Origin: Candidatus Bathyarchaeota archaeon
GTDB taxonomy: Archaea > Thermoproteota > Bathyarchaeia > 40CM-2-53-6
Length of the DNA: 64,000 nucleotides
Direction: 5' to 3'
NCBI GenBank assembly: GCA_005888755.1
Contig: VBBQ01000026.1
Span: 12,132 to 76,131, forward strand
Shown here: positions 47,201 through 58,985 of the stretch, piece after piece
How the letters are laid out: every line of letters begins with the position of its first letter
Position numbering within the stretch: position 1 is the stretch's first letter
Program-made: the position numbers and the translations under genes
Notes under the pieces: model-generated
The model's database searches: none
Told to the model about the DNA's origin: nothing
The model's input: only the letters and a program-made list of their open reading frames with translations

Positions 47201-47385
47201 TCTCTTTCTGTACCTATTTTTCTTTTGTAGATTTTCTTTTCGCTAACGTTTGTCTAAGTATTGTTTTTCTAGTCACCCCCCCGTGGGTGGTCTATTTTTT
47301 CGCGTGCCGCGCCTTTCGTGGCCTGAGATTCGCGCGACAGGAAAACGACCATTATCAGCCCATATGTTCCAGGAGAGAACGGATT
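47201..47385 (+). repeat. Dispersed intergenic element, copy A
   Basis: Pyrimidine-rich head (TCTCTTTCTGTA ... TTTCTTTTCGCTAAC), a GC-rich core around CACCCCCCCGTGGG, CCTTTCGTGGCC-like CGCCTTTCGTGGCC, and CATTATCAGCCC then TGTTCCAGG. The same ordered blocks occur in copy C at 58603 and, with changes, copy B at 53750. No protein reading frame is conserved between copies. Confidence 0.6.
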
Positions 47386-47462
47386 AACCTACTATCAAGA
47401 TAGCGTTAAATAACATTCAAGCGCAGACATAACCTACTATCGCTATGGCATGTGGGAGGTGA

Positions 47463-48421
47463 ATGTTTCTGACCAGAACAAACAAGGGCAAAACCGGCGT
47501 CCTCGTGCTCCTATCCGCGAGCCTCGTCGTCTTCTCTCTCGGCTCCCTCTCAGCCTATCCCACGGCCGCCCAGGCTACGTGTAAAAGCGGGCGCGTCAAA
47601 ACTGTTCATCAAAGCTCGAGAGTCTCCAGACTAGCAAAGTTGAGAAATGGAAAGTCTTCTGTCGGAAGGCTAGAGATCATCGAATCCGTCATCAAGACAT
47701 TGAAACCCTTGGACTATGTTCATGCATTCTGGGAAGGAGGAGCAGCGTCCTTCGGACGAGCTGATGAATGGTCCGACATTGACGCCTATTTGTTAGTTAA
47801 CGACTCGAAGGTCGCGGATGCTTTTCTCGCCGTCGAAAAGGCCCTCGAGTCGGTGTCTCCGATCAAGCAAAATACGTTGTAAGCCAGAACTCTTGGCCCG
47901 GCGTATCTCAAGCCTTCTACAGGCTCAGCGGAGCGAGCGAGTATCTCCTAGTCGACCTTGCAATACTGACGGAGTCTAGCCCGCAGAAGTTCCTAGAACC
48001 GGAAATACACGGAAGAGCAATCTTCCACCTCAATAAGACAGGTATGATCGAAGCGCCCAGACTGGACAAACACGGACTCGACGAAAGGGTGGAACAGAGA
48101 TTGGGCGTGCTGAAGGAGAGGTTTGAAATCTTCAACAACTTCGTTCAGAAAGAAATGAACAGAGGAAACAGTCTCGAAGCACTAGAATACTACCGAACGA
48201 TGGTGATCGCCTCTCTCGTTGAGGTTCTTCGAATCAAATACTATTCACCTCACTACGATTTTAGAATGCGATACATTAACCACGAACTGCCTCCGGAAAT
48301 CGTCAAGAAGCTGGAAAATCTCTGTTTTGTCAGAGGAAAGGAAGAGCTCCAGAGAAAATACCTCGAAGCATTGCAATGGTTCAACAGAGCTATGGTTGAA
48401 TCCAGCGCTTCGAAAGAGTAG
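47463..48421 (+). pseudogene. Nucleotidyltransferase-like gene with frameshift and fused signal peptide
   Basis: The first frame (47463-47882) has a signal-peptide-like head (TGVLVLLSASLVVFSLGSLS) and then a nucleotidyltransferase core GGAASFGRADEWSDIDAYLL. It fails at SPIKQN in an A4 run at 47869-47872. Adding one A gives KYVVSQNSWPGVSQAF, then EYLLVDLAILTESSPQKFLE and a helical C-terminus to the stop at 48421. A homopolymer lesion is equally typical of sequencing error and of decay. A signal peptide on such a fold is odd; a TTG at 47640 could be the older start. Confidence 0.65.
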
Positions 48422-48558
48422 ACATCTATTTCTCGGCCTACCGAGGACGCTTGAATGTGCAGTCATTCGGGAATAAAGCTCCCGACGAGTATTATGAAGA
48501 AACCGACCGATGAGTTTCTATTAGTACGCTGATCGGCAATTGTCCTGAGGAAAGAACC

Positions 48559-49467
48559 GTGAAGATTGGGCTGTTGGTCTTCATTGCGAACGACCGTGAA
48601 ACGTACCAGAGCCGTTCCTATGATACGATCCGCGCCGTCGCGCAACAGGCCGAGAAGGACGGTTTCGACAGTATCTGGCTACCTGACCATTTCCTCTACC
48701 GGAATCCAGGGGAGCCGACCCGCGGGATCTGGGAGTGCTGGACCATGCTGGCGGCGCTCGCCGAGGCAACACACCGCGTCGAGATCGGCACTCTCGTCAC
48801 GTGCAATTCCTTCCGCAATCCCGCGATCCTAGCGAAAATGGCCACCACCGTTGACGAGGTAAGCCATGGCCGCTTGATACTAGGTATCGGGGCCGGATGG
48901 AACGAACCGGAGTATCAGGCACTCGGATTGCCCTTCGACCATCGGGTAGGCCGCTTAGAGGAAGCCTTGCAGATAATCAAACCGTTACTCCGCGACGGCC
49001 ACGTCGATTTCTCGGGACAGTATTATCAAGCGCGAAACTGCGAGATCGCACCCCGCGGCCCGCGGCCCGAAGGACCGCCGCTGATGGTGGGATGCGAACA
49101 AAAAAGTCCACGCATGCTCAAGCTCACCGCAAAATACGCGGATCTCTGGAACACGGGGTACATGGGCAAGCCGGAAACAATAGCCGAGCCCTTCGCCAAA
49201 ATCGAAGACGCGTGCCGCAAAACCGGGCGCGATCCGAAAACGCTTGGAGTCACAGCGTTCATCGGCCTCTGGTTCCCTGACCTCCAAACAAAGAAACCCA
49301 AATTCTTCGACAATCCACTGACAGGCTCGACGGAGGAGATCGCAGCAGCAATGCGCGGGTACGCAGAACTCAACGTGCAACACATCATGTTTCAGTGCGA
49401 GCCTTACGTGCCTCAAGCGATTCGGCGGCTGACCGAGGCACTCCGACTCTATCGGAGAACGGCTTGA
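48559..49467 (+). CDS. LLM class F420-dependent oxidoreductase
   Basis: 302 residues, GTG start. TIM-barrel luciferase-like family: MKIGLLVFIANDRETYQ, GFDSIWLPDHFLYRNPG, GTLVTCNSFRNPAILAKMA, VSHGRLILGIGAGWNEPEY and PPLMVGCEQKSPRMLKL. Members use F420 (or FMN) for reductions or oxygenations. Third-codon GC is high, similar to bacterial homologues, so it may have been acquired. It precedes a regulator-SDR-QueA-like operon after 217 bases. Confidence 0.87.
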   Translation: MKIGLLVFIANDRETYQSRSYDTIRAVAQQAEKDGFDSIWLPDHFLYRNPGEPTRGIWECWTMLAALAEATHRVEIGTLVTCNSFRNPAILAKMATTVDEVSHGRLILGIGAGWNEPEYQALGLPFDHRVGRLEEALQIIKPLLRDGHVDFSGQYYQARNCEIAPRGPRPEGPPLMVGCEQKSPRMLKLTAKYADLWNTGYMGKPETIAEPFAKIEDACRKTGRDPKTLGVTAFIGLWFPDLQTKKPKFFDNPLTGSTEEIAAAMRGYAELNVQHIMFQCEPYVPQAIRRLTEALRLYRRTA

Positions 49468-49633
49468 CCCTACGCCATTTCAACGTCTGTGGCGCCATCC
49501 CTCATCTTCCTAATCTCCATGGTGCTTTCGAAACCTACGCCCTCGGTCTTCCTCCTCGACGCGTCCATTCCAGCAGCTGAGGTCTCAGCGACCTGTCCTC
49601 GTGTCGCATGAGTCAGGATACCCAAGACTTTCG

Positions 49634-49656
49634 CAACTTTGTAAACCCGTAAGTTG
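49634..49656. promoter_or_regulatory. CAACTT-N11-AAGTTG palindrome, candidate operator
   Basis: A perfect 6-base inverted repeat about 29 bases before the ATG of the regulator at 49685, overlapping the expected promoter. Probably an autoregulatory site. Confidence 0.45.
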
Positions 49657-49684
49657 AAATACTCTTAAGACCAAACATCACGCA

Positions 49685-50356
49685 ATGAGCATTCCACTCC
49701 TAGATCCACCGGCAGGCAACCCAACCTTCGGATCTACCAAGCGCGAAATCCTATTAATTCTCAAACGCGAAGGCCAGTCAGATCTCCAAACTCTCGCCGA
49801 ACACTTACGAATCTCAAAAATGGCGGTTCACAAACACGCTCAGGAACTAGAAAAGAGGGGACTGATCGAACGCATACCGGTCCGAGGTACAACAGGCAGG
49901 CCCCGCCTCGCCCTGCGACTCGCCCCCAGCGCAACCTCACTCTTCCCAAGGGCCTACGCGGGAATAACATGCGCCGCCCTCGAATACATCGAGGAGAAGC
50001 TTGGACGAAAAGCTGTTGAAGAAGCTCTCCGTCGCCGACAAGCCGAAACACTCACCACCTACCGCGATCAGGTCAACGCAGAAACCCTCGCCCAACGTGT
50101 CCACCAGCTCGCCGGACTCCGCGATCGCGAAGGATACATGGCCGAAGACCACCAATCAGGCCCCGCAAAGTTCGAGATCCTAGAGCACAATTGTCCGATA
50201 CTCGCAGTTGCCGAGAACTACTGGGAGGCATGCACAGTCGAGAACGAACTGTTCCGAAAAGTATTGGATGCGAAAGTTGAGACAACACACCGTGTCGTTG
50301 CAGGCGGCAATGTCTGCCGTTTCCTAGTCACACCGAAACAGAGGACCCCTGGATGA
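49685..50356 (+). CDS. Winged-helix regulator with Cys cluster (COG2345/SufR-like)
   Basis: 223 residues. N-terminal HTH (TKREILLILKREG ... LRISKMAVHKHAQELEKRG) with the wing PVRGTTGRPRLALRLA. The C-terminal domain has HNC, then Cys after 12 residues (CPILAVAENYWEAC) and a last Cys in GGNVCRFLV. SufR-type proteins bind an Fe-S cluster with four Cys in this arrangement (C-x12-C-x13-C-x14-C); here the third is missing. It overlaps the SDR gene by four bases and likely controls the operon. Confidence 0.78.
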   Translation: MSIPLLDPPAGNPTFGSTKREILLILKREGQSDLQTLAEHLRISKMAVHKHAQELEKRGLIERIPVRGTTGRPRLALRLAPSATSLFPRAYAGITCAALEYIEEKLGRKAVEEALRRRQAETLTTYRDQVNAETLAQRVHQLAGLRDREGYMAEDHQSGPAKFEILEHNCPILAVAENYWEACTVENELFRKVLDAKVETTHRVVAGGNVCRFLVTPKQRTPG

Positions 50357-51072
50357 AACGGGTCTCGCTAATCACTGGTGCTGGACGCGGCCTCGGCCGA
50401 ATACTCGCCACATTCCTCGCAGGTCAAGGATGCGACATCGTCATAACAGCTCGAACCATCACAGAGCTTCACAACGTTTCTCAATCTCTCGAAAGCCTCG
50501 GCACACGAGTCGCCGCAATTCCTGGTGACATCACAAACCCCGTACACAGGACTCGCTTGCTGCAACAAACGAGAGCCATGGGTGGCCTCAGCCTCCTCGT
50601 GAACAACGCCTCTGATCTCGGGGAAACCCCACGTCCCGAACTCGCTCGAGCCTCTCTCACGCGATTCCGGACAACACTCGAAACAAACCTAGTCGCCCCA
50701 CTCGCGCTCATACAAGAAGCACTCCCTCAACTCGAACAGATGAGGGGACTCGTAGTCAACATCTCCAGCGACGCAAGCCTGGGAGGTTACGAGCGATGGG
50801 GAATCTACGGTTCAACCAAGGCTGCCCTCGACCTCGCCTCGAAGACTCTTTCAGCAGAACTCAAACCACGCCACATTTCCGTCGTGAGCGTCGACCCCGG
50901 TGACATGCGGACCCGGATGCATCAGGACGCGTTTCCCGGCGAGAACATATCCGACCGCCCCCTCCCAGAAGTAACGCTTCCATTCTGGGCATGGCTCGTC
51001 AGCCAAGACCCCGAACGCATCACCGGGATGCGCTACCAGGCACAAGGAACACTCTGGGAGATCCCAGCTTGA
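50353..51072 (+). CDS. Short-chain dehydrogenase/reductase
   Basis: 239 residues. NAD(P) motif TGAGRGLGRILATFLAGQ, NNASDLG, catalytic Tyr-Lys in YGSTKAALDLASKTLS with Ser in ISSDASLGG, and the DPGDMRTRMHQD loop. Substrate unknown. The ATG overlaps the regulator stop and its own stop overlaps the start of the QueA-like gene (TTGA), so the three are co-translated. Confidence 0.88.
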   Translation: MKRVSLITGAGRGLGRILATFLAGQGCDIVITARTITELHNVSQSLESLGTRVAAIPGDITNPVHRTRLLQQTRAMGGLSLLVNNASDLGETPRPELARASLTRFRTTLETNLVAPLALIQEALPQLEQMRGLVVNISSDASLGGYERWGIYGSTKAALDLASKTLSAELKPRHISVVSVDPGDMRTRMHQDAFPGENISDRPLPEVTLPFWAWLVSQDPERITGMRYQAQGTLWEIPA

Positions 51073-52109
51073 ACCGATCCGAACTCATGTTCGACCGTCC
51101 CACCGATCTCTTCGCCAGCGCACCCCCGGAGATGCGTGGACATGACCGAGATGACATCCGCCTAATGGTCTCGACACCCGACGGCGATATACACTACACG
51201 TTCACTGATCTGCCTGGGCTCCTAGAACCTGGAGACATGCTAGTTGTCAACGAGAGCGCGACCTTGCCCGCAAGCCTCCCAGCCGCAAGCCGTCTAGGCA
51301 ACATCAGACTCAACCTCTCAACACGATTTGCAGACGACCTCTGGCTCGCGGAACCAAGATGGAGTCCATCAAGGCCCGGCCCGCTACCCCTCAAGGAACA
51401 CGAGATGATTCAGATCGGCGAGGCGAAAGCCCTCCTGCTCCAACAGTATCCTGGAATCCCGAGACTCTGGTTCGTCCGCCTAGACACTCCAGCTAGCTGT
51501 CTCATGGCCAAGTACGGCGAGCCCATTCACTACAATTACGCTCCCGCCTATCCCATGTCAAACTATCAAACCATCTTCTCCCGCTTCCCGGGAAGTGTCG
51601 AGATGCCAAGTGCCGCACGGCCCATCACAGCACATGTCCGCGACATGCTTCGCTCACGTGGCATCGGCATTGTTGGAGTAATCCTTCACACCGGTGTCTC
51701 GAGCCTAGAGATTGAAGATGAAACAGTGGAGCACCAAGCTCTCTACCCAGAGGTCTTCCGGGTCCCCGAAGCAAGCGCAACCGCTGTCAACGCAACGCAC
51801 GCCCGAGGCGGCCGCGTCATCGCCGTCGGAACCACAGTCGTCCGTGCTCTCGAAACCGCCTGGACACCAAACGGCCTTCGCGCCATCTCTGGAGCAACCG
51901 GCCTCTACATTCACCCCGGAAACAGCATCCATGCTATCGATGGACTCCTCACAGGATTGCATGATCCTGTAACGAGCCATCTTGCGATGCTCAGCGCGAT
52001 CGCGGGCCTCGACCGGGTCAAGAAAGCATACGGTGAGGCCATCCGGAACCGGTACCTCTGGCATGAATTCGGCGACAGCCATCTACTGTGGCGACAGGAC
52101 GCAAACTAA
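51069..52109 (+). CDS. QueA-like S-adenosylmethionine:tRNA ribosyltransferase-isomerase homologue
   Basis: 346 residues from the TTG at 51069 overlapping the SDR stop; an ATG at 51087 (MFDRPTDLFAS) is an alternative. QueA motifs are clear: PGDMLVVNESATLPASLPA, GEPIHYNYAPAYPMSNYQT, FHTG-like VILHTGVSSLEIEDET, EVFRVPEASATAVN and AVGTTVVRALETAW. In bacteria QueA makes epoxyqueuosine in tRNA. No TGT or queuosine gene is nearby, and archaea normally make archaeosine, so the reaction here is likely different. Confidence 0.85.
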   Translation: MNRSELMFDRPTDLFASAPPEMRGHDRDDIRLMVSTPDGDIHYTFTDLPGLLEPGDMLVVNESATLPASLPAASRLGNIRLNLSTRFADDLWLAEPRWSPSRPGPLPLKEHEMIQIGEAKALLLQQYPGIPRLWFVRLDTPASCLMAKYGEPIHYNYAPAYPMSNYQTIFSRFPGSVEMPSAARPITAHVRDMLRSRGIGIVGVILHTGVSSLEIEDETVEHQALYPEVFRVPEASATAVNATHARGGRVIAVGTTVVRALETAWTPNGLRAISGATGLYIHPGNSIHAIDGLLTGLHDPVTSHLAMLSAIAGLDRVKKAYGEAIRNRYLWHEFGDSHLLWRQDAN

Positions 52110-52160
52110 GAATTCTCTTTCTGTAACAATTTTCTCGTTTTTCATCTTTCCAGTGTTCCC
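52110..52160 (+). repeat. Dispersed intergenic element, head-only copy D
   Basis: TTCTCTTTCTGTAACAATTT directly after the QueA-like stop matches the head of copies A and C. The rest of the element is not recognisable here. Confidence 0.35.
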
Positions 52161-52206
52161 TCGCGCCAATCTGAAAAGGAGCGGAAAACGTTCACAAGCC
52201 ATCTTT

Positions 52207-52842
52207 CTAGCGGAGCCGTTTGTCTTGTTCCTCCTCTAGAGAGGAGACTCGGACGTCATAGAGGAACTCGCGCAGCTCGTCTTCATGTTTCGGATCATCG
52301 GGTAGAGGCGACTCCTTCAGCGCTAAGTCTAGTTCATCGATGAATTTCGGGATATCCTTCGGCGAGGTCCCAGTTATGGGCCGATATTCGATGACGCCTT
52401 CGCGCAGTAGTTTGCAGCCCATTATGATTGTTCGTGCAATCGTGTTGCATCGTTTTGCGCTGTCGTCGCGTTCGCTGACGATATACTTTTCATAATTGTG
52501 CTCAGCAAGACCCTTTATGCTATGATAGGCTCTCTTACTGTAGTTCATCGCTGCAAGGCGGTGCAGCTCCGATAGACGGGACCAGTCTTTGACGACTATC
52601 GGACTCATGACTCCACTCAGATAGTTCCAGTTGTTCCTCAAAACTTGATTTACTATGCGACCAAGCTCGTGATACTGTCTATCAGTTGGGCCGGAGTATT
52701 CAACCCTAGATTGATCGTCAAACTCGCCGCGAAGGATCGACTTGGTTGGAGCGAGGACTGCAACGAAAAGGTCCAGGTCTGATCCTGGATGATTCATCTG
52801 CCACATGTGCGATCCTACGTTCGTTACGAATAGTTCCTTCAT
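52207..52842 (-). CDS. Nucleotidyltransferase-superfamily protein
   Basis: 211 residues. The core is VGSHMWQMNHPGSDLDLFVA, the GS...(S/G)DxD signature of minimal nucleotidyltransferases, with the family carboxylates spaced as in YcgL/antibiotic nucleotidyltransferase-like proteins. A long helical C-terminus follows (LHRLAAMNYSKRAYHSIKGL). The acceptor is unknown. A second nucleotidyltransferase-like gene, broken, lies at 47463. Confidence 0.65.
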   Translation of the reverse strand: MKELFVTNVGSHMWQMNHPGSDLDLFVAVLAPTKSILRGEFDDQSRVEYSGPTDRQYHELGRIVNQVLRNNWNYLSGVMSPIVVKDWSRLSELHRLAAMNYSKRAYHSIKGLAEHNYEKYIVSERDDSAKRCNTIARTIIMGCKLLREGVIEYRPITGTSPKDIPKFIDELDLALKESPLPDDPKHEDELREFLYDVRVSSLEEEQDKRLR

Positions 52843-52905
52843 CTGGCTGGCACCAAAACAGGTAGGTAAATTAGGTATTTGAGAAGTTTTTCGACGGTGG
52901 GGAAC

Positions 52906-53729
52906 AACTCATAAGCCAACCGAAACTCCCGCCGACCTTCGCGCCAGAAAATCGTCTCGAAGAACTGCTCGTTTCATTTGGTAAGAAGGGTCCAGCGGAT
53001 TCACAGTTCTACAGAGAGTTCCTGAATTCAGACGTGGTCACCCTCGGGAGGCTCGATTCTGGGTCGATGCTCAAGGAGGGTTTTCAACGGCTCGAAGCCA
53101 CAACGAAGTTTACCATGAGATTACTCGCGTTCAAGGGTGAGCCTGTTGTGGCTATCTATTCCTCAATCAAACGAATGACCGATGTGATTCCCGAAGAGTA
53201 CTATCGAGAGACGGGATACATCCAACTCAACTGCAAGATGTTGCTACAGACTGTAGTGTCCTGGGAAAGAAACACGAAACTCGCCTGAATCCTGGACATA
53301 TGCTCGTCAAGACGTTCTCGCCTGAGGAGGTGAAAGCTCTCTTGGACGGAAGCATCTTGAAACAAATCGAAGAAGATTGGATTTCAGCCAGTCCAACAAA
53401 TATTCCCCTTCCGAAAGGCTCACAGGTGCTGGTGGGTCGGCCAAAGGTAACTCCAACAGGACTAATGGATAAGCTGGCGAACTGCTTTCAATCCAAAGGA
53501 GATGTGGAACAAGCATGGGTTGGACAGATTTTCGTCCAGTCGTCGGGACAGCCTAGTGATATGTCTCAAGCTTTCGAAAAACTCTCGAAGAACATTTCAG
53601 CAGGTCTTGTTCAACCTCGGACCGACAATCCACTCAGTTCTCGGTGAGAAGGAACTCCTTGACATTCTTGACGCCACGGGGAAGGCTGAGGCGTGGATAA
53701 ACCGCCTCATTCCGTTCTTCCCGCGGTGA
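52906..53729 (+). pseudogene. SseB family protein broken by two frameshifts
   Basis: Frame one (to 53288) gives ENRLEELLVSFGKKGPADSQ, FYREFLNSDV and YIQLNCKMLLQTV. Frame two then gives RLNPGHMLVKTFSPEEVKAL to VGQIFVQSSGQPSDM. Frame three gives VLGEKELLDILDATGKAEAW and RLIPFFPR to 53729. In order these are the SseB N- and C-terminal domains (LNPG and the closing PFFPR are diagnostic). Junctions are near 53250 and 53615. No ATG, GTG or TTG precedes the first domain in frame. Two lesions favour a real pseudogene. Confidence 0.7.
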
Positions 53730-53749
53730 TTGCTACCGGCAGGAATCCC

Positions 53750-54098
53750 TATTGCTGACTATTTTCTAAGCATTCTTTTTTCTAGTGACCTCCCCGGGGA
53801 CTTCGATTTTCCCCATCCACACTGTTCGCGGCCAGAGATAACGGACATGAAATCGCCGATTTTCGGCCCTGATTCAGGATCTGAACAGGCCTACTTCTAA
53901 AGTGGGATAATCCGCGCTGTAAACGCGAATAATTCCCGGCCGACCCAAGCCCAGACCATGCCCGGATTAGCCTGTCTCGCCCATTATCACCGCTAGACAC
54001 GAAATGTTCCAGGAAAAATAGGGGGTATTAGCGACCGAGCTTCCCGTCGCGTGAGTGGACAGTCCGTACTTGCCACCGAGACTAAGCTGACGTGGATG
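53750..54098 (+). repeat. Dispersed intergenic element, copy B (long form)
   Basis: Shares with copy C the blocks CCCCGGGG, GATTTTCCC, GTTCGCGGCC, ATGAAATC, GCCCTGAT, CATTATCA, GGGGGTATT, CACCGA and TAAGCTGAC in the same order. It follows the broken SseB gene by about 20 bases and ends before the stop of the convergent phosphoesterase gene. No gene is seen in it. Confidence 0.65.
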
Positions 54099-54112
54099 TG
54101 CGATGGATTCTT

Positions 54113-57100
54113 CTATGGTTTCCAGCCAATTGCTCTGAACTGCGACGTGCCAGTGGGAAAAGTCGTGAGTTTCGTTAGTGTTCCGTTGTTGTAGGTCAGT
54201 ATGGTGCCGCTTCCGCCCGCGATGTAAGCTGTGCCTGATGGGGACCAGCTGATACCGTAGAGCCAGCTCGAAGTTATAGTCGGAAGCATGGTCAATGTTG
54301 ACCCGTTGTAAGTGAGCACCATTCCGTTGTCACCGGCCAAAAGTGCGAGGGTGCCTGTTGGGTTGAAGGAGATCGCCCGGATAGCGGCGTTGGGTGAGAT
54401 GATGCTCGTGTTGATCGTGGCAACCTGTGTCCCATCGAACTGTAACAGCGTCCGGTTGAGCCCGCCTATCAAAGCGTACGCGCTATTCGGATTCCACGCC
54501 GCCGCGTCCAAGTCGAACGTTGTGCCGGTCGCGAACGAGCGGACTGTTGTCCCATCATATGTCAACGCCAACCCGACCTTGCCTATCAAGAGCGCATAAC
54601 TACCGCTCGGATTCCAGCTGATCGAAAGAATGGTTGATGACGTGTTAGGAATTGTCGTGACCGTGACGCCATCGTACTTGAACAGGATACCCGACGTGCC
54701 ACCTACCAGCGCAAAGGACCCGTCAGGCTTCCAGGAAACAGTCCAGAAATTGAACCCGGTCGAGATACCGGTTGACACAGTCGTAAGCGATGTTCCATCG
54801 TACTTCAGAAGAACCGCAAAGTCTCCCGATATCAGCGCGTAGGACCCGTCAGGCTTCCAAGCAACCGACCGCAAGGCAGTCGTTACCGGCTGGCCAATCA
54901 GCGTCAGCGTGCCATTCGGGTAAAGCCTGGAAACCTTTCCGTCGTTGGTGACGACAAGAGCATAGGCCGATTGCGGAGACGCACCGACAACCGTTACAGT
55001 TTCGCTACCGCTACTGCCAAGGTGCGACGAATCTCCTGCATAGCTAGAGGTTATCGTGTGGAACCCGGTTATACTAGGCGTGTAGCTGACCGAGCAACTC
55101 GCAACACCAACGGTCCCTGAAGCTGTCAGTGAGCAGCTGGGCTGGGAGAATACGCCTGTCGAGTTCGAAGCGAAACTGACAGAACCGCTAGGAGTAACAC
55201 TGCCTCCACTTGAGGAGTCGGTGATCGTAGCCGAACAATTGGAGGTCTGGTTTACAACAACCGGGCTAGTGCATACGACCACGCTTGAAGTAGTACGCTG
55301 ATTGATCATCACGTTCGCTCCGGCGCTGGTGCTCGCACTGTGAGCAGTGTCGCCGCCGTATCCGCCTGCGATTGTAGCAGTGCCTGATGCTGTTGCGGTG
55401 AAGGTAACAGAACAACTGCCCGAAACTAGAGCGCAGGTCGCGGAGCTGAAAGATCCCGGAGCTCCGGTCTCTGTGAAATTGATGCTACCCGACGGAGTGA
55501 TCGTTGTTCCCGGTGACGTGTCAGAGACTGTCACAGTACAAGATGAAGCCTGGTTTACAAAAACTGGACTCGAACAGACCAAAGCTGTAGAAGTCGTCCG
55601 TGGGTCTACCGTGATACTTGCGGCCGCGCTAGTGCTCCCGCCATGCGACGAGTCGCCACCATACGTGCCAGTAACTAACGCATTGCCACTTGCAGCCGGA
55701 GTAAACGTGACCGAGCAGCTACCTGATGATAGAGAGCAAGAGGTCGAGCTGAACGAACCAGCAGGACCTGTCTCAGTGAACCTGACTATTCCCGTTGGAG
55801 TAGTTGAGCTGGCGTTAGTGTCTGTCACCGTCGCCGTGCACAATGATCCCTGGTTGACCAGAACTGGGCTGGCGCAGGTAACTGCCGTTGTTGTGTTATG
55901 AAGTGGCACAGTGGTCACAGTTACGCTGAACGCTGGACTCGTGCTAGCAGCATGAGCAGAGTCACCGCCGTACGCACCGGTGATCAGGGCGGAACCTGCT
56001 GCAGTAGGAGTGAAAATAACCGAGCAACTACCAGACACTAGAGTGCATGTAGTCGAGCTGAAAGAGCCGGCAGGACCAGTCTCGGCAAATGTGACAGTAC
56101 CCGTCGGGGTGGTTGGGGAGATCGTCGATGTGTCACTCACCGTCGCGGTGCAAGTGGAAGCCTGGTTCACGATCACAGAGGAAGGAGAGCAATTAACAAC
56201 GGTTGCAGTCGTGTGCTGGCCCACGTGAACCTGGACAACGACCAAGTGCAGTAGCGAGCCACTGGTCGCCTTGATCGTCACGTTGTAAACGCCTGAGGCC
56301 TGGTTAGACGGTACCTGAACGGAGAGAACTGAACTCTTCGTCCCGTTTACGGTGAGACTTGGATTGTTCGGGTTCAGAGTCGCTTTAGGTCCAGCAGGGC
56401 TCACGGATACCGTGGTGGATATTCCTCCTTGGAATGTGTAGAGGCTCTGGAACAGGATCTGGGAGGTCCCCGAGGATCCTGGGGAGATATTCAAGGTAAC
56501 AGGGTTGGCCGTCATGTTAAAGTCCGGCACTCGCACTGTCACATTCAACGCGTGGACCAGAGACCCGCTGGTCCCTGTCACGGTCGCAATGTAGATCCCG
56601 GTTGGCACCGTCTTGCTCGCAACGATTTTTAGATTGTCGTTGACCGTTTGGCCGACGTTCAACGTCACGGACGGGTTTTGCATCGAGACAGCCAATCCTT
56701 GGGGAGAGACAAAGGCCGTTAGAGCGACTGTTCCCTTGAATCCTCCAAGGCCTGTGACAGCAATCGCGGACTGGCTGTTCTGGCCCCGCTGAACCGTCAG
56801 AAGGTACGGCTTAGCAACGAGTTTGAAGTCGAACGTCGACACCGTGATACTGTTCGAGACAGAAGCGGTGTGACCCGCAGAATCACTTGTCGTCAGGGTA
56901 ACGGCATAGGATCCGCCTGCCGAATAGACATGAGTCACCGGGTTTCCTGTTGCCGAGCTTCCGTCTCCGAAAGTCCAGTTGAACATGTAGGGAGAAGAGC
57001 CTCCCGACGCCGTGCCAGTGAAAGTTACACTCTGGCCGGGAACGGGGGAAGACGGACTGAATGCAAAGCTGGTGGAGAGTGGATTGGTGGTGAAGAATTC

Positions 57101-58075
57101 GGCCATAGGAGTAGCTGAGGCGTCGTTAGTTGCCAAGCTAGCGAGGTTCCAGTTGACTTCTACAGTCTTTGTGAACGAGTAGTGGTTGTAGAGGTTACTC
57201 GTGACAAAACTAGTCTTTGTCCCTGGTCCTGCCCAAACTGCATAGACGCAGTCCTCAGAACTACCATTGAGGGGGCAGTACCCATTGCCCTCGTCGAAGA
57301 CGAGGAACAGTGCAGAGCGTTGTGTTGTGAAGGTCCGGCTGTTGAGAATATTCGGCACGAGACCGCTGAGATAGTTGTCTCCTAACGGGATCGAGGTGGC
57401 ACAGATGCCGGTGACGCCGTGCATGTTGTTGCAATTATTCGGGGTGAGCCACATGAAATTCGGCGCCGCCGCCGAATTCAAGTCGTTAATCAATACACAA
57501 TCTGTGACAGAGCAAGTTGTCGGGTTTGCCATGACGAGATTAGAACATCGGGCCGGATTACTTGTGATGTCGGTGAAGAAGACGAAGGGGTTGTGTTCTG
57601 GAGTATATGGCTCATTGTAGCCAGTGTCGCAACCGCTTGAAGGTGCCTGGTTCTCCATGTAGCCTTTCCAGGTTAATCCTGCGGCTTCAAACCGGTCCAC
57701 CAAGTTCGCGTTTGCTGATGCTTGGCAGGGGTAGGCGACACAGCCGTTGATGTCTCCTCCGAGAGTGGCTATGTAGTCAGCCTGGCTGAAGTGGGAAACT
57801 CCGAGATACTGGGAACCTATCCCGTAGCTGTTGGCGAGGCCGGCAGCGTAGGGGTCTCCGTTTGTGCTCAAGCATGGCGGTGGACTCCGAGCGCAGATGT
57901 TGTTGATGCCATGGTCCTCCATCATAATGATCACGACATGATCGAAGTAGGTTCCGCTGGAAGGTGAAGCAGACACGGGTCTTATGCCCCCACCAACCAT
58001 TGCTGTGCCTAGAACCGAGAGGAATAAACCAGCCAGAAGGATCGCAGCCTTTCCTATGTGAATGCGATTGTTCAT
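54113..58075 (-). CDS. Large secreted mosaic phosphoesterase
   Basis: 1320 residues with a signal peptide (AAILLAGLFLSVLGTAMV). Residues about 40-330 are an acid phosphatase / phospholipase C-type domain (YFDHVVIIMMEDHGINN, ALFLVFDEGNGYC, YNHYSFTKTVE). A PKD domain follows (335-413, FNWTFGDGSS), then two Ig-like beta domains (414-618), four tandem Big3-type repeats of about 97 residues (620-1030), and a C-terminal beta-propeller (1037-1320) with repeated SVAWKPDGSYALISG. The phosphoesterase should act on the outside of the cell; the rest is a stalk and binding head. No frame break. Confidence 0.85.
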   Translation of the reverse strand: MNNRIHIGKAAILLAGLFLSVLGTAMVGGGIRPVSASPSSGTYFDHVVIIMMEDHGINNICARSPPPCLSTNGDPYAAGLANSYGIGSQYLGVSHFSQADYIATLGGDINGCVAYPCQASANANLVDRFEAAGLTWKGYMENQAPSSGCDTGYNEPYTPEHNPFVFFTDITSNPARCSNLVMANPTTCSVTDCVLINDLNSAAAPNFMWLTPNNCNNMHGVTGICATSIPLGDNYLSGLVPNILNSRTFTTQRSALFLVFDEGNGYCPLNGSSEDCVYAVWAGPGTKTSFVTSNLYNHYSFTKTVEVNWNLASLATNDASATPMAEFFTTNPLSTSFAFSPSSPVPGQSVTFTGTASGGSSPYMFNWTFGDGSSATGNPVTHVYSAGGSYAVTLTTSDSAGHTASVSNSITVSTFDFKLVAKPYLLTVQRGQNSQSAIAVTGLGGFKGTVALTAFVSPQGLAVSMQNPSVTLNVGQTVNDNLKIVASKTVPTGIYIATVTGTSGSLVHALNVTVRVPDFNMTANPVTLNISPGSSGTSQILFQSLYTFQGGISTTVSVSPAGPKATLNPNNPSLTVNGTKSSVLSVQVPSNQASGVYNVTIKATSGSLLHLVVVQVHVGQHTTATVVNCSPSSVIVNQASTCTATVSDTSTISPTTPTGTVTFAETGPAGSFSSTTCTLVSGSCSVIFTPTAAGSALITGAYGGDSAHAASTSPAFSVTVTTVPLHNTTTAVTCASPVLVNQGSLCTATVTDTNASSTTPTGIVRFTETGPAGSFSSTSCSLSSGSCSVTFTPAASGNALVTGTYGGDSSHGGSTSAAASITVDPRTTSTALVCSSPVFVNQASSCTVTVSDTSPGTTITPSGSINFTETGAPGSFSSATCALVSGSCSVTFTATASGTATIAGGYGGDTAHSASTSAGANVMINQRTTSSVVVCTSPVVVNQTSNCSATITDSSSGGSVTPSGSVSFASNSTGVFSQPSCSLTASGTVGVASCSVSYTPSITGFHTITSSYAGDSSHLGSSGSETVTVVGASPQSAYALVVTNDGKVSRLYPNGTLTLIGQPVTTALRSVAWKPDGSYALISGDFAVLLKYDGTSLTTVSTGISTGFNFWTVSWKPDGSFALVGGTSGILFKYDGVTVTTIPNTSSTILSISWNPSGSYALLIGKVGLALTYDGTTVRSFATGTTFDLDAAAWNPNSAYALIGGLNRTLLQFDGTQVATINTSIISPNAAIRAISFNPTGTLALLAGDNGMVLTYNGSTLTMLPTITSSWLYGISWSPSGTAYIAGGSGTILTYNNGTLTKLTTFPTGTSQFRAIGWKP
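54986..56215 (-). repeat. Four tandem Ig-like repeats within the phosphoesterase
   Basis: Repeat unit about 97 residues, marked by STTCTLVSGSCSV-type loops, TPTGTVTF/TPSGSINF, and AYGGDSAHAAST at each end. All four keep a Cys pair. The repeats are similar enough at DNA level that misassembly or length variation is plausible. Confidence 0.8.
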
Positions 58076-58332
58076 GATGTGCCATCCGCGATAAAGGAGA
58101 GAATTAGTAATTCTACCCGCGTTGAGTTAACGCATGTGTCGTTCAAGACAGTTTGTCAGGCGATCTGCCGAGTATTTAATCTTGAGAATATTCAGATATA
58201 TTTTGATGTACTAAGGTACACTTGGGAAAGAAAGCAAGCATTCGAAATTGGATGGATGTGCTCAAGAGCCCGCTCTTGAACGTGCATCGATCGGTTTCTG
58301 TCAAGAACCCAAGTTTGAATTAGCCAATTGAC

Positions 58333-58599
58333 TTGGCAGATTGCTACAACATCCAGGCTAAGAGGGGAAAGACGCCCCAGAGGACTTTTGGAAATTAGCC
58401 ATCAAAAAGGCTCGGCGAAGCAGGGAAAGACCTTGGCAAAACATGCCGATCTTTTGGCATGGCTTAAGTCAGAAATTGGATTAGCGTATGTGCGTGCGAG
58501 CTTTATCAATTGTATCTACGCTTGCGCACTAATGACCCGAAAGTTACTGCTCAATCGGAAAAGTGGGCCTACAGCACAGGGTACCAAAAATTGAGATAG
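58333..58599 (+). pseudogene. DUF4287-like gene broken by several frameshifts
   Basis: Pieces in three frames read in order. A TTG at 58333 gives MADCYNIQAKRGKTPQ. A second frame gives FWKLAIKKA. A third gives SAKQGKTLAKHADLLAWLKS and EIGLAYVRAS. The final piece, YLRLRTNDPKVTAQSEKW and AYSTGYQKLR, ends at TAG 58597-58599. The NIQAKTGKTPEDF ... WLKSxxGL ... order is that of DUF4287 proteins. Three or more lesions make this a real pseudogene. Copy C of the dispersed element begins right after it. Confidence 0.6.
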
Positions 58600-58602
58600 C
58601 AT

Positions 58603-58985
58603 TTCATTTCTGTAACTTTTCCTTTCGCTAACTATTCTTTTCTGCTAACTAATCTCTGCCCCCCCGGGGGCGGATTTTCCCGCCTCCCGCCCTTCGTGGC
58701 CGCCCAAATCGCCTTTGCATGAAATCACCCATTATCAGCCCTGATCATGCATCTGGAAGATGGTCCCTATTTTGCCCTTGGATTCGTTCGTGATGGGTCC
58801 TAGCTTTCCCGTCTTTTCGCCTTTTCAGTTATGCCTGGATTGCGCCCTGAATCGGCAGAATCGCCGGCAATCGGTGCCTGACAACAAGTTAGCTCCGCGA
58901 AGAGGGAAGGGGGTATTGCACAGCGCACCTCGCGAGGCAAGAGTAGAGAGTTCGGACTGGTCACCGAAAGTAAGCTGACTCTCGT
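58603..58985 (+). repeat. Dispersed intergenic element, copy C (long form)
   Basis: Head TTTCTGTAACTTTTCCTTTC then GCTAAC, core CCCCCCCGGGGGCG with CGCCCTTCGTGGCC, ATGAAATCACCCATTATCAG, GCCCTGAT, and the tail GGGGGTATT, CACCGAAAGTAAGCTGAC. It matches copy B over nearly its length and copy A over the first 150 bases. Ends 22 bases before the stop of the metallopeptidase gene. No protein frame is shared. Confidence 0.65.

What the first reader, a model, noticed from the sequence alone, without database searches (positions are those of the whole stretch)
47201..58985. Dispersed GC-rich intergenic element in four copies between 47 and 59 kb
Copies A (47201-47385), B (53750-54098) and C (58603-58985), with a head-only copy D (52110-52160), share ordered blocks: a pyrimidine-rich head with TTTCTGTA and GCTAAC, a C-run/G-run core, CTTCGTGGCC, ATGAAATC, CATTATCAGCCC, and in B and C the tail GGGGGTATT ... 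CACCGA ... TAAGCTGAC. All are on the same strand and each follows a plus-strand gene or gene remnant. No reading frame is conserved, so this is not a coding repeat. It could be a non-autonomous mobile element, a structured RNA, or a class of 3' end. Within the window it is restricted to this 12-kb stretch.
Basis: seen in the sequence. Interest (0 to 1): 0.72.

Follow-up and report, generated by a model that had tools for sequence, protein, structure and literature searches.

The report
Fixed-slot intergenic DNA repeats, soil Bathyarchaeia
A soil archaeon and its relatives carry dozens of copies of a non-coding DNA unit between genes, at the same places and in the same direction in different species although the copy sitting at each place keeps changing; its two main conserved motifs stay a whole number of DNA-helix turns apart, as if a protein bound them, but what it does is unknown.

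Summary
The repeat is real, and much larger than the finding says. Copies A, B and C hold; D does not; a fifth decayed copy lies at 49579-49613. Genome-wide there are about 69 bodies (~216 nt core, ~245 nt unit) and 34 heads (~110 nt) in 2.0 Mb. The body occurs in 20 of 21 genomes tested from one family of soil Bathyarchaeia and in none of 100 outside it. There is no 3'-end rule, promoter, terminator, terminal inverted repeats, Y1 transposase or convincing RNA covariation. Slots are conserved: 25 of 26 relative gaps holding an element also hold one here, and orientation agrees in 63 of 66 comparisons. Occupants are not: same-slot copies share a subtype in 12.5% of pairs. Tandem pairs (26) are never the same subtype. 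The two main conserved motif copies lie 124 or 135 bp apart (145 in another genus), one helical turn per step, while a neighbouring segment drifts freely. Best reading: a DNA-level, protein-binding element kept at fixed slots, with units swapped by ectopic recombination. The binding protein and its purpose (possibly chromosome organisation) are inferred. A new variant of prokaryotic interspersed intergenic repeats; no described family was found to match.

The parts
47214..47324 (+). Head module of copy A (T-rich ~16-nt repeats, C-run/G-run imperfect palindrome, CTTTCGTGGCC)
   Evidence: head profile 48.4 bits, E=4e-14
47347..47366 (+). First conserved block of a body (CATTATCAGCCC) left in copy A; the rest of the body is deleted
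   Evidence: exact block at 47350-47361; alignment of A, B, C
49579..49613 (+).
   Evidence: pooled body profile positions 184-218, E=0.012 in the window; L160 and L166 carry full bodies beside the orthologue of gene 49685-50356
53736..53836 (+). Head module of copy B
   Evidence: head profile 43.6 bits, E=1.2e-12
53851..54055 (+). Body of copy B, short class
   Evidence: body profile 159.3 bits, model 1-216
53853..53865 (+). Motif copy 1 in B (TCGCCGATTTTCG)
   Evidence: sequence; alignment A1
53977..53989 (+). Motif copy 3 in B (TCGCCCATTATCA), 124 bp from copy 1
   Evidence: sequence; spacing classes
54056..54091 (+). Unit tail of copy B (ends CACCGAGACTAAGCTGAC), weakly conserved family-wide
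   Evidence: D3 repeat, 71% identical to C; conserved ~15-20 nt after the core
58598..58704 (+). Head module of copy C
   Evidence: head profile 70.4 bits, E=5.9e-21
58723..58943 (+). Body of copy C, long class
   Evidence: body profile 161.0 bits, model 1-216
58725..58737 (+). Motif copy 1 in C (TCACCCATTATCA)
   Evidence: sequence; alignment A1
58861..58873 (+). Motif copy 3 in C (TCGCCGGCAATCG), 136 bp from copy 1
   Evidence: sequence; spacing classes
58944..58979 (+). Unit tail of copy C (ends CACCGAAAGTAAGCTGAC)
   Evidence: D3 repeat

Best explanation
These are members of a genome-wide family of non-coding intergenic DNA elements found in one family of soil Bathyarchaeia. A ~216-nt body (with tail, ~245 nt) carries two near-identical copies of a 13-bp motif (TCGCCCATTATCA) and further GCC sites, and sometimes follows a ~110-nt head of T-rich ~16-nt repeats and an imperfect palindrome. 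SHOWN: copy number, restriction to this family, conserved slots and orientations, turnover of occupants, quantised motif spacing, and absence of promoter, terminator, terminal inverted repeats and clear RNA structure. INFERRED: the element acts as double-stranded DNA; a sequence-specific protein binds the two main motif copies on a fixed face of the helix, making a looped or bridged complex, most plausibly for chromosome organisation. INFERRED: occupants are replaced by ectopic recombination (gene conversion) between dispersed copies, which keeps place and orientation while changing the subtype; loss is by deletion.
For: About 69 bodies and 34 heads in 2.0 Mb. Body matches in the own genome and 19 of the 20 family relatives listed (all 17 other genus members, one genome each of g2 and g4; G019 without), none in 100 genomes outside the family; an exact pattern over 84,980 species hits only soil Bathyarchaeota and 'Crenarchaeota' MAGs. 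Gaps between orthologous adjacent genes: 25 of 26 relative gaps with an element have one here, 142 gaps have none in either; orientation agrees in 63 of 66. Slots found from a flanking protein alone keep the element: L230 slot, 5 of 6 close relatives plus clade-II G008 and G009. Same-slot pairs share a subtype in 17 of 136, different slots 3.4%, while subtypes recur at many slots. Tandem pairs: 26, none alike. Recent near-identical pairs stop at or within about 10 nt of the unit ends. Motif spacing 123-127 (n=55) or 133-138 (n=85), 3 between; other lineages about 135 and 145; nearly all variation sits in one segment (24-28 or 33-40 nt), while motif copy 3 to the G-run varies smoothly, 36-50 nt. 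TATA-like boxes upstream: 0.6% (+ strand) and 2% (- strand) of elements, 7% of genes.
Against: No binding protein was identified and nothing shows binding. The spacing classes could stem from a few ancestral 11-nt indels among related subtypes, so 35 subtypes are not 35 independent events. Some relatives lack an element at a given slot (G005 at L262 and L230; G007 near C). Two paralogue pairs above 90% identity fit recent transposition as well as conversion. The slot test used relatives' loci chosen for containing the element; searches are free of this but cover three slots. Part of the low same-slot identity is plain divergence. Draft MAGs limit orthology calls.
Confidence: 0.5

Rival explanations
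1. An old non-autonomous mobile element family (MITE- or SINE-like) that expanded in the ancestor, inserts next to existing copies at low rate, and is now mostly inherited and decaying.
For: Dispersed multi-copy units with sharp ends; two paralogue pairs above 90% identical ending near the unit boundaries; tandem neighbours of different subtypes at 25-36 nt linkers, one 58; decayed remnants (window 49579-49613; own L239 site versus L192).
Against: No terminal inverted repeats in C and none at the ends of B; no target-site duplication seen; no Y1 transposase family in the genome; fixed slots and orientation in 63 of 66 comparisons; conserved motif spacing; the one gap that looked empty holds a remnant.
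Confidence: 0.28
2. A family of functional non-coding RNAs, transcribed from one strand and binding protein or targets through repeated unstructured motifs.
For: Polar, asymmetric unit with conserved blocks; the best subtype folds reach z about -3.
Against: No consensus structure; within-subtype z mostly between 0 and -2.9 with 0 to 9 double-changed pairs; no TATA-like box or terminator on either strand; no Rfam match; second tandem units have about 28 nt for a promoter.
Confidence: 0.14
3. A class of mRNA 3' ends, terminators or 3' UTR elements.
For: In the window A, B and C lie downstream of + strand genes or remnants; heads are T-rich.
Against: Genome-wide bodies lie in all gene settings (convergent 20, divergent 16, antisense 16, sense 7) and heads likewise; runs of five T after bodies in 16% only.
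Confidence: 0.03
4. One recently duplicated segment or chance similarity in a 12-kb stretch.
For: Only these copies are visible inside the window.
Against: 69 genome-wide body matches down to E = 5.6e-42 and body matches in 19 relatives.
Confidence: 0.01

Closest known systems
BOX elements of Streptococcus pneumoniae (PMC3049150)
   Same: Intergenic, non-coding, composite of ordered modules with variable module number; copy number at a site varies between strains.
   Different: BOX modules are predicted to form stem-loops if transcribed, and BOX terminal repeats resemble those of an IS; here no fold, no terminal inverted repeats, different sizes and host, and neighbouring units are of different subtypes.
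MITEs of prokaryotes and archaea (PMC10969869; definition in PMC3049150)
   Same: Short dispersed non-coding elements, many copies.
   Different: MITEs are described as AT-rich with terminal inverted repeats, highly base-paired structures and target-site duplications; none of these was found here.
ERIC, REP/BIME and similar enterobacterial intergenic repeats (own knowledge; ERIC and BIME mentioned in PMC3049150)
   Same: Tens of copies between genes.
   Different: Those are palindromic; these are asymmetric arrays of direct motif copies, and the genome has no Y1 (REP-type) transposase.
Iteron arrays and multi-site protein-binding loci (replication or partition sites; own knowledge)
   Same: Repeated binding-like motifs at helically constrained spacing.
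   Different: Usually one or a few loci per replicon; here about 69 bodies over the chromosome and no known binding protein.

Membership tests
MITE | Terminal inverted repeats | tested here: not met
   No inverted pairs of 8 nt or more in C; in B only pairs away from the unit ends
MITE | Target-site duplication at an empty/filled site | tested here: inconclusive
   The apparent empty site L239 holds a remnant; G005 lacks the unit at the L262 slot but the junction has no clear duplication
MITE | Highly base-paired secondary structure | tested here: not met
   Single-sequence fold z about 0 on both strands
MITE | Cognate transposase with matching ends in the host | tested here: inconclusive
   Only the Y1 transposase family was searched: absent
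BOX element | Ordered modules with variable module number | tested here: met
   Head then body in B and C and in relatives; single and tandem bodies at one slot in different species. Order is not strict: some heads follow bodies
BOX element | Stem-loop fold when transcribed | tested here: not met
   No consensus fold
BOX element | Sequence homology to boxA, boxB, boxC | not tested
   No direct comparison made
REP/BIME | Y1 (RAYT) transposase in the host | tested here: not met
   No Y1_Tnp in the own genome, 5 control genomes positive
Structured RNA | Conserved fold with compensatory changes | tested here: not met
Structured RNA | Transcript | not testable with these tools
   No RNA data held
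Protein-binding DNA array | Repeated motif copies at helically constrained spacing | tested here: met
   Motif copies 3.6 mismatches of 13 apart versus 9.7 for random segments; spacing 124/135/145
Protein-binding DNA array | Binding protein | not testable with these tools
   None identified

The most novel reading that the evidence does not exclude
A chromosome-wide set of about 50-60 fixed intergenic slots carrying exchangeable cassettes, each a helically phased docking array for one lineage-specific DNA-binding protein, with motif copies changing together as the protein changes (CATTATCA here, CAGAATAA in clade II, CATTTTGA in G020): an archaeal chromosome-folding code.
Probability: 0.25. 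Interest if true: 0.85.

Novelty: new variant of a known kind. Interest (0 to 1): 0.62.

Why it matters
Prokaryotic intergenic repeats are usually read as transposon relics or RNA elements. Here positions and direction are kept between species whose 4-fold sites are strongly diverged while the occupant is replaced, and the motif spacing is quantised by about one helical turn. If a protein binds these slots, uncultured soil archaea would offer a sequence-readable map of chromosome organisation sites. In any case annotators should treat this family as one repeat family and not as scattered non-coding RNA candidates.

Tried and rejected
Rfam gathering scan of the window: none. RNAalifold on the pooled alignment and within ten subtypes, both strands, with shuffled controls: weak or none; the strong minus-strand energies first seen were largely a composition effect once a strand-matched control was used. 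3'-end class: no gene-orientation rule. Promoter and terminator search at element edges: none. Simple tandem duplication: 26 tandem pairs, none of one subtype. Core-only swapping: all segments of same-slot pairs sit near background, so whole units appear exchanged. Phage, plasmid and viral collections: no match. REP-type transposase: absent. Helical phasing of GCC trinucleotides is not used as proof, because all copies share ancestry. Literature searches found no description.

Full report
OBSERVATION. Copies A, B and C were re-read and the repeat finder recovers their shared blocks. Genome-wide profiles place heads at 47214-47324, 53736-53836 and 58598-58704 and bodies at 53851-54055 and 58723-58943 with 44 to 161 bits. 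A is a head followed by the first block of a body. D is not detected.

GENOME-WIDE. Blastn with copies B and C found 27 and 37 places in the own genome, 2,014,445 bases in 48 contigs. The matches split into two modules. The body is a ~216-nt core plus a weakly conserved 15-20 nt tail; the head is ~110 nt. Sequence-only models R1 (body) and R2 (head) find 69 and 34 matches. A divergent second body subfamily lacks the GGGGGTCTT block.

DISTRIBUTION. One search covered 121 genomes including the own one: 20 have body matches, namely the own genome, the 17 other genus members and one genome each of g2 and g4; G019 (same family, 67% complete) and all 100 genomes outside the family have none. G018 (g2) has 37 matches, four clade-II genomes 11 to 25, G020 (g4) two. 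The head is found only in the genus. An exact 21-nt pattern over 84,980 species gives 85 stretches; the 80 listed are all in soil Bathyarchaeota or 'Crenarchaeota' MAGs. Viral contigs, phages and plasmids give none.

CONTEXT. With a codon-usage gene caller trained on the fetched own regions, bodies lie in convergent (20), divergent (16), antisense co-directional (16) and sense co-directional (7) settings. There is no 3'-end rule.

SLOTS. Of 117 elements in relatives' loci, 101 have an orthologue of a flanking gene in the fetched own regions, and 85 of these have an own element on the same side. Using only orthologous adjacent gene pairs: 25 gaps have an element in both, one only in the relative, 142 in neither; orientation agrees in 24 of 25, and in 63 of 66 slot-by-species comparisons. 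Those loci were picked for containing the element, so three slots were tested from a flanking protein alone. L262 slot: bodies in G007, G010 (two) and G013, none in G005. C slot: head and body in G004 and G010, body in G006, head only in G005, a head fragment at the locus edge in G013, none within 1.5 kb in G007. L230 slot: bodies in G001, G004, G006, G007 (two) and G010, none in G005, and clade-II bodies in G008 and G009 at 74-76% protein identity, in the same orientation relative to the gene. A fourth protein (L209) matched only one relative, with an equally scoring body. No clade-II body was found at the L262 and C slots.

TURNOVER. Same-slot copies in different species are 61% identical on average, against 60% for different slots. 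They share a subtype in 17 of 136 pairs, against 3.4% between slots and 7.5% within the genome, and subtypes recur over many slots. Neutral expectation is low: 4-fold site identity to the relatives is 0.45-0.70, so simple divergence explains part of this; but subtypes shared across species at other slots above that level require movement or conversion. Recent near-identical pairs end at or within about 10 nt of the unit ends. Tandem pairs lie 25-36 nt apart (one 58) and none of 26 is of a single subtype; some subtypes occur only first, others nearly always second.

FUNCTION. RNA: no consensus fold, single-sequence z about 0, subtype z mostly weak with a matched control, no promoter or terminator at the edges. 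DNA: two copies of TCGCCCATTATCA differ on average by 3.6 of 13 bases within a unit, against 9.7 for random segments; the similarity is a family property, not unit-by-unit (shuffled 3.7). Their spacing is 123-127 or 133-138 bp with three exceptions in 143 units; it is 135-136 in G018, mostly 133-136 in clade II and 145 in G020. Nearly all the variation sits in one segment of 24-28 or 33-40 nt, while the segment after motif copy 3 varies smoothly over 36-50 nt. The resultant over 35 subtype medians at 10.5 bp is 0.78, against a mean of 0.20 for uniform lengths, but subtypes are related. In G020 the motif copies changed together (CATTTTGA), and clade II shows a similar trend. I infer sequence-specific protein binding on a fixed helical face; this is not shown.

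KNOWN KINDS. BOX elements share the modular design but are predicted to fold as RNA and carry terminal repeats (PMC3049150). MITEs are defined by features not found here. No description was found.

LIMITS. Draft MAGs; a home-made gene caller; models built partly from the genome they were scored on; subtype clusters depend on a distance cut-off; no expression or binding data.

Noticed in passing
window 47463-48421: Two adjacent open frames (139 and 125 aa) look like one nucleotidyltransferase-type gene broken by a frameshift or stop; no Pfam match.
   Followed up: no
window 52207-52842: RlaP family protein (RNA repair pathway DNA polymerase beta family) between copies A and B.
   Followed up: no
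window 53034-53647: Gene remnants; the second piece matches the SseB C-terminal domain.
   Followed up: no
head modules, e.g. window 58598-58704: The head holds about three T-rich ~16-nt direct repeats (GTAACTWTTYTTTTC) and an imperfect palindrome GACCCCCCGGGGTGGTC, and in several copies extends about 70 nt further (ACGCTCGGAATCCACGTTCAC...CTTCGTGAAATC).
   Followed up: partly
L217:3454-3756: A head lies between the 5' and 3' parts of a body, as if inserted in it.
   Followed up: partly
L247:6339-6721 and L249:2269-3206; L209:1926-2109 and L259: Other repeated intergenic stretches (81% over 168 nt; 85% over 89 nt) outside the body and head families.
   Followed up: no
L163 (BA_4) and L209 (own): Same slot with an identical body and flanking proteins 100% identical, unlike most other BA_4 loci compared; a possible recent exchange or shared strain DNA.
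   Followed up: no
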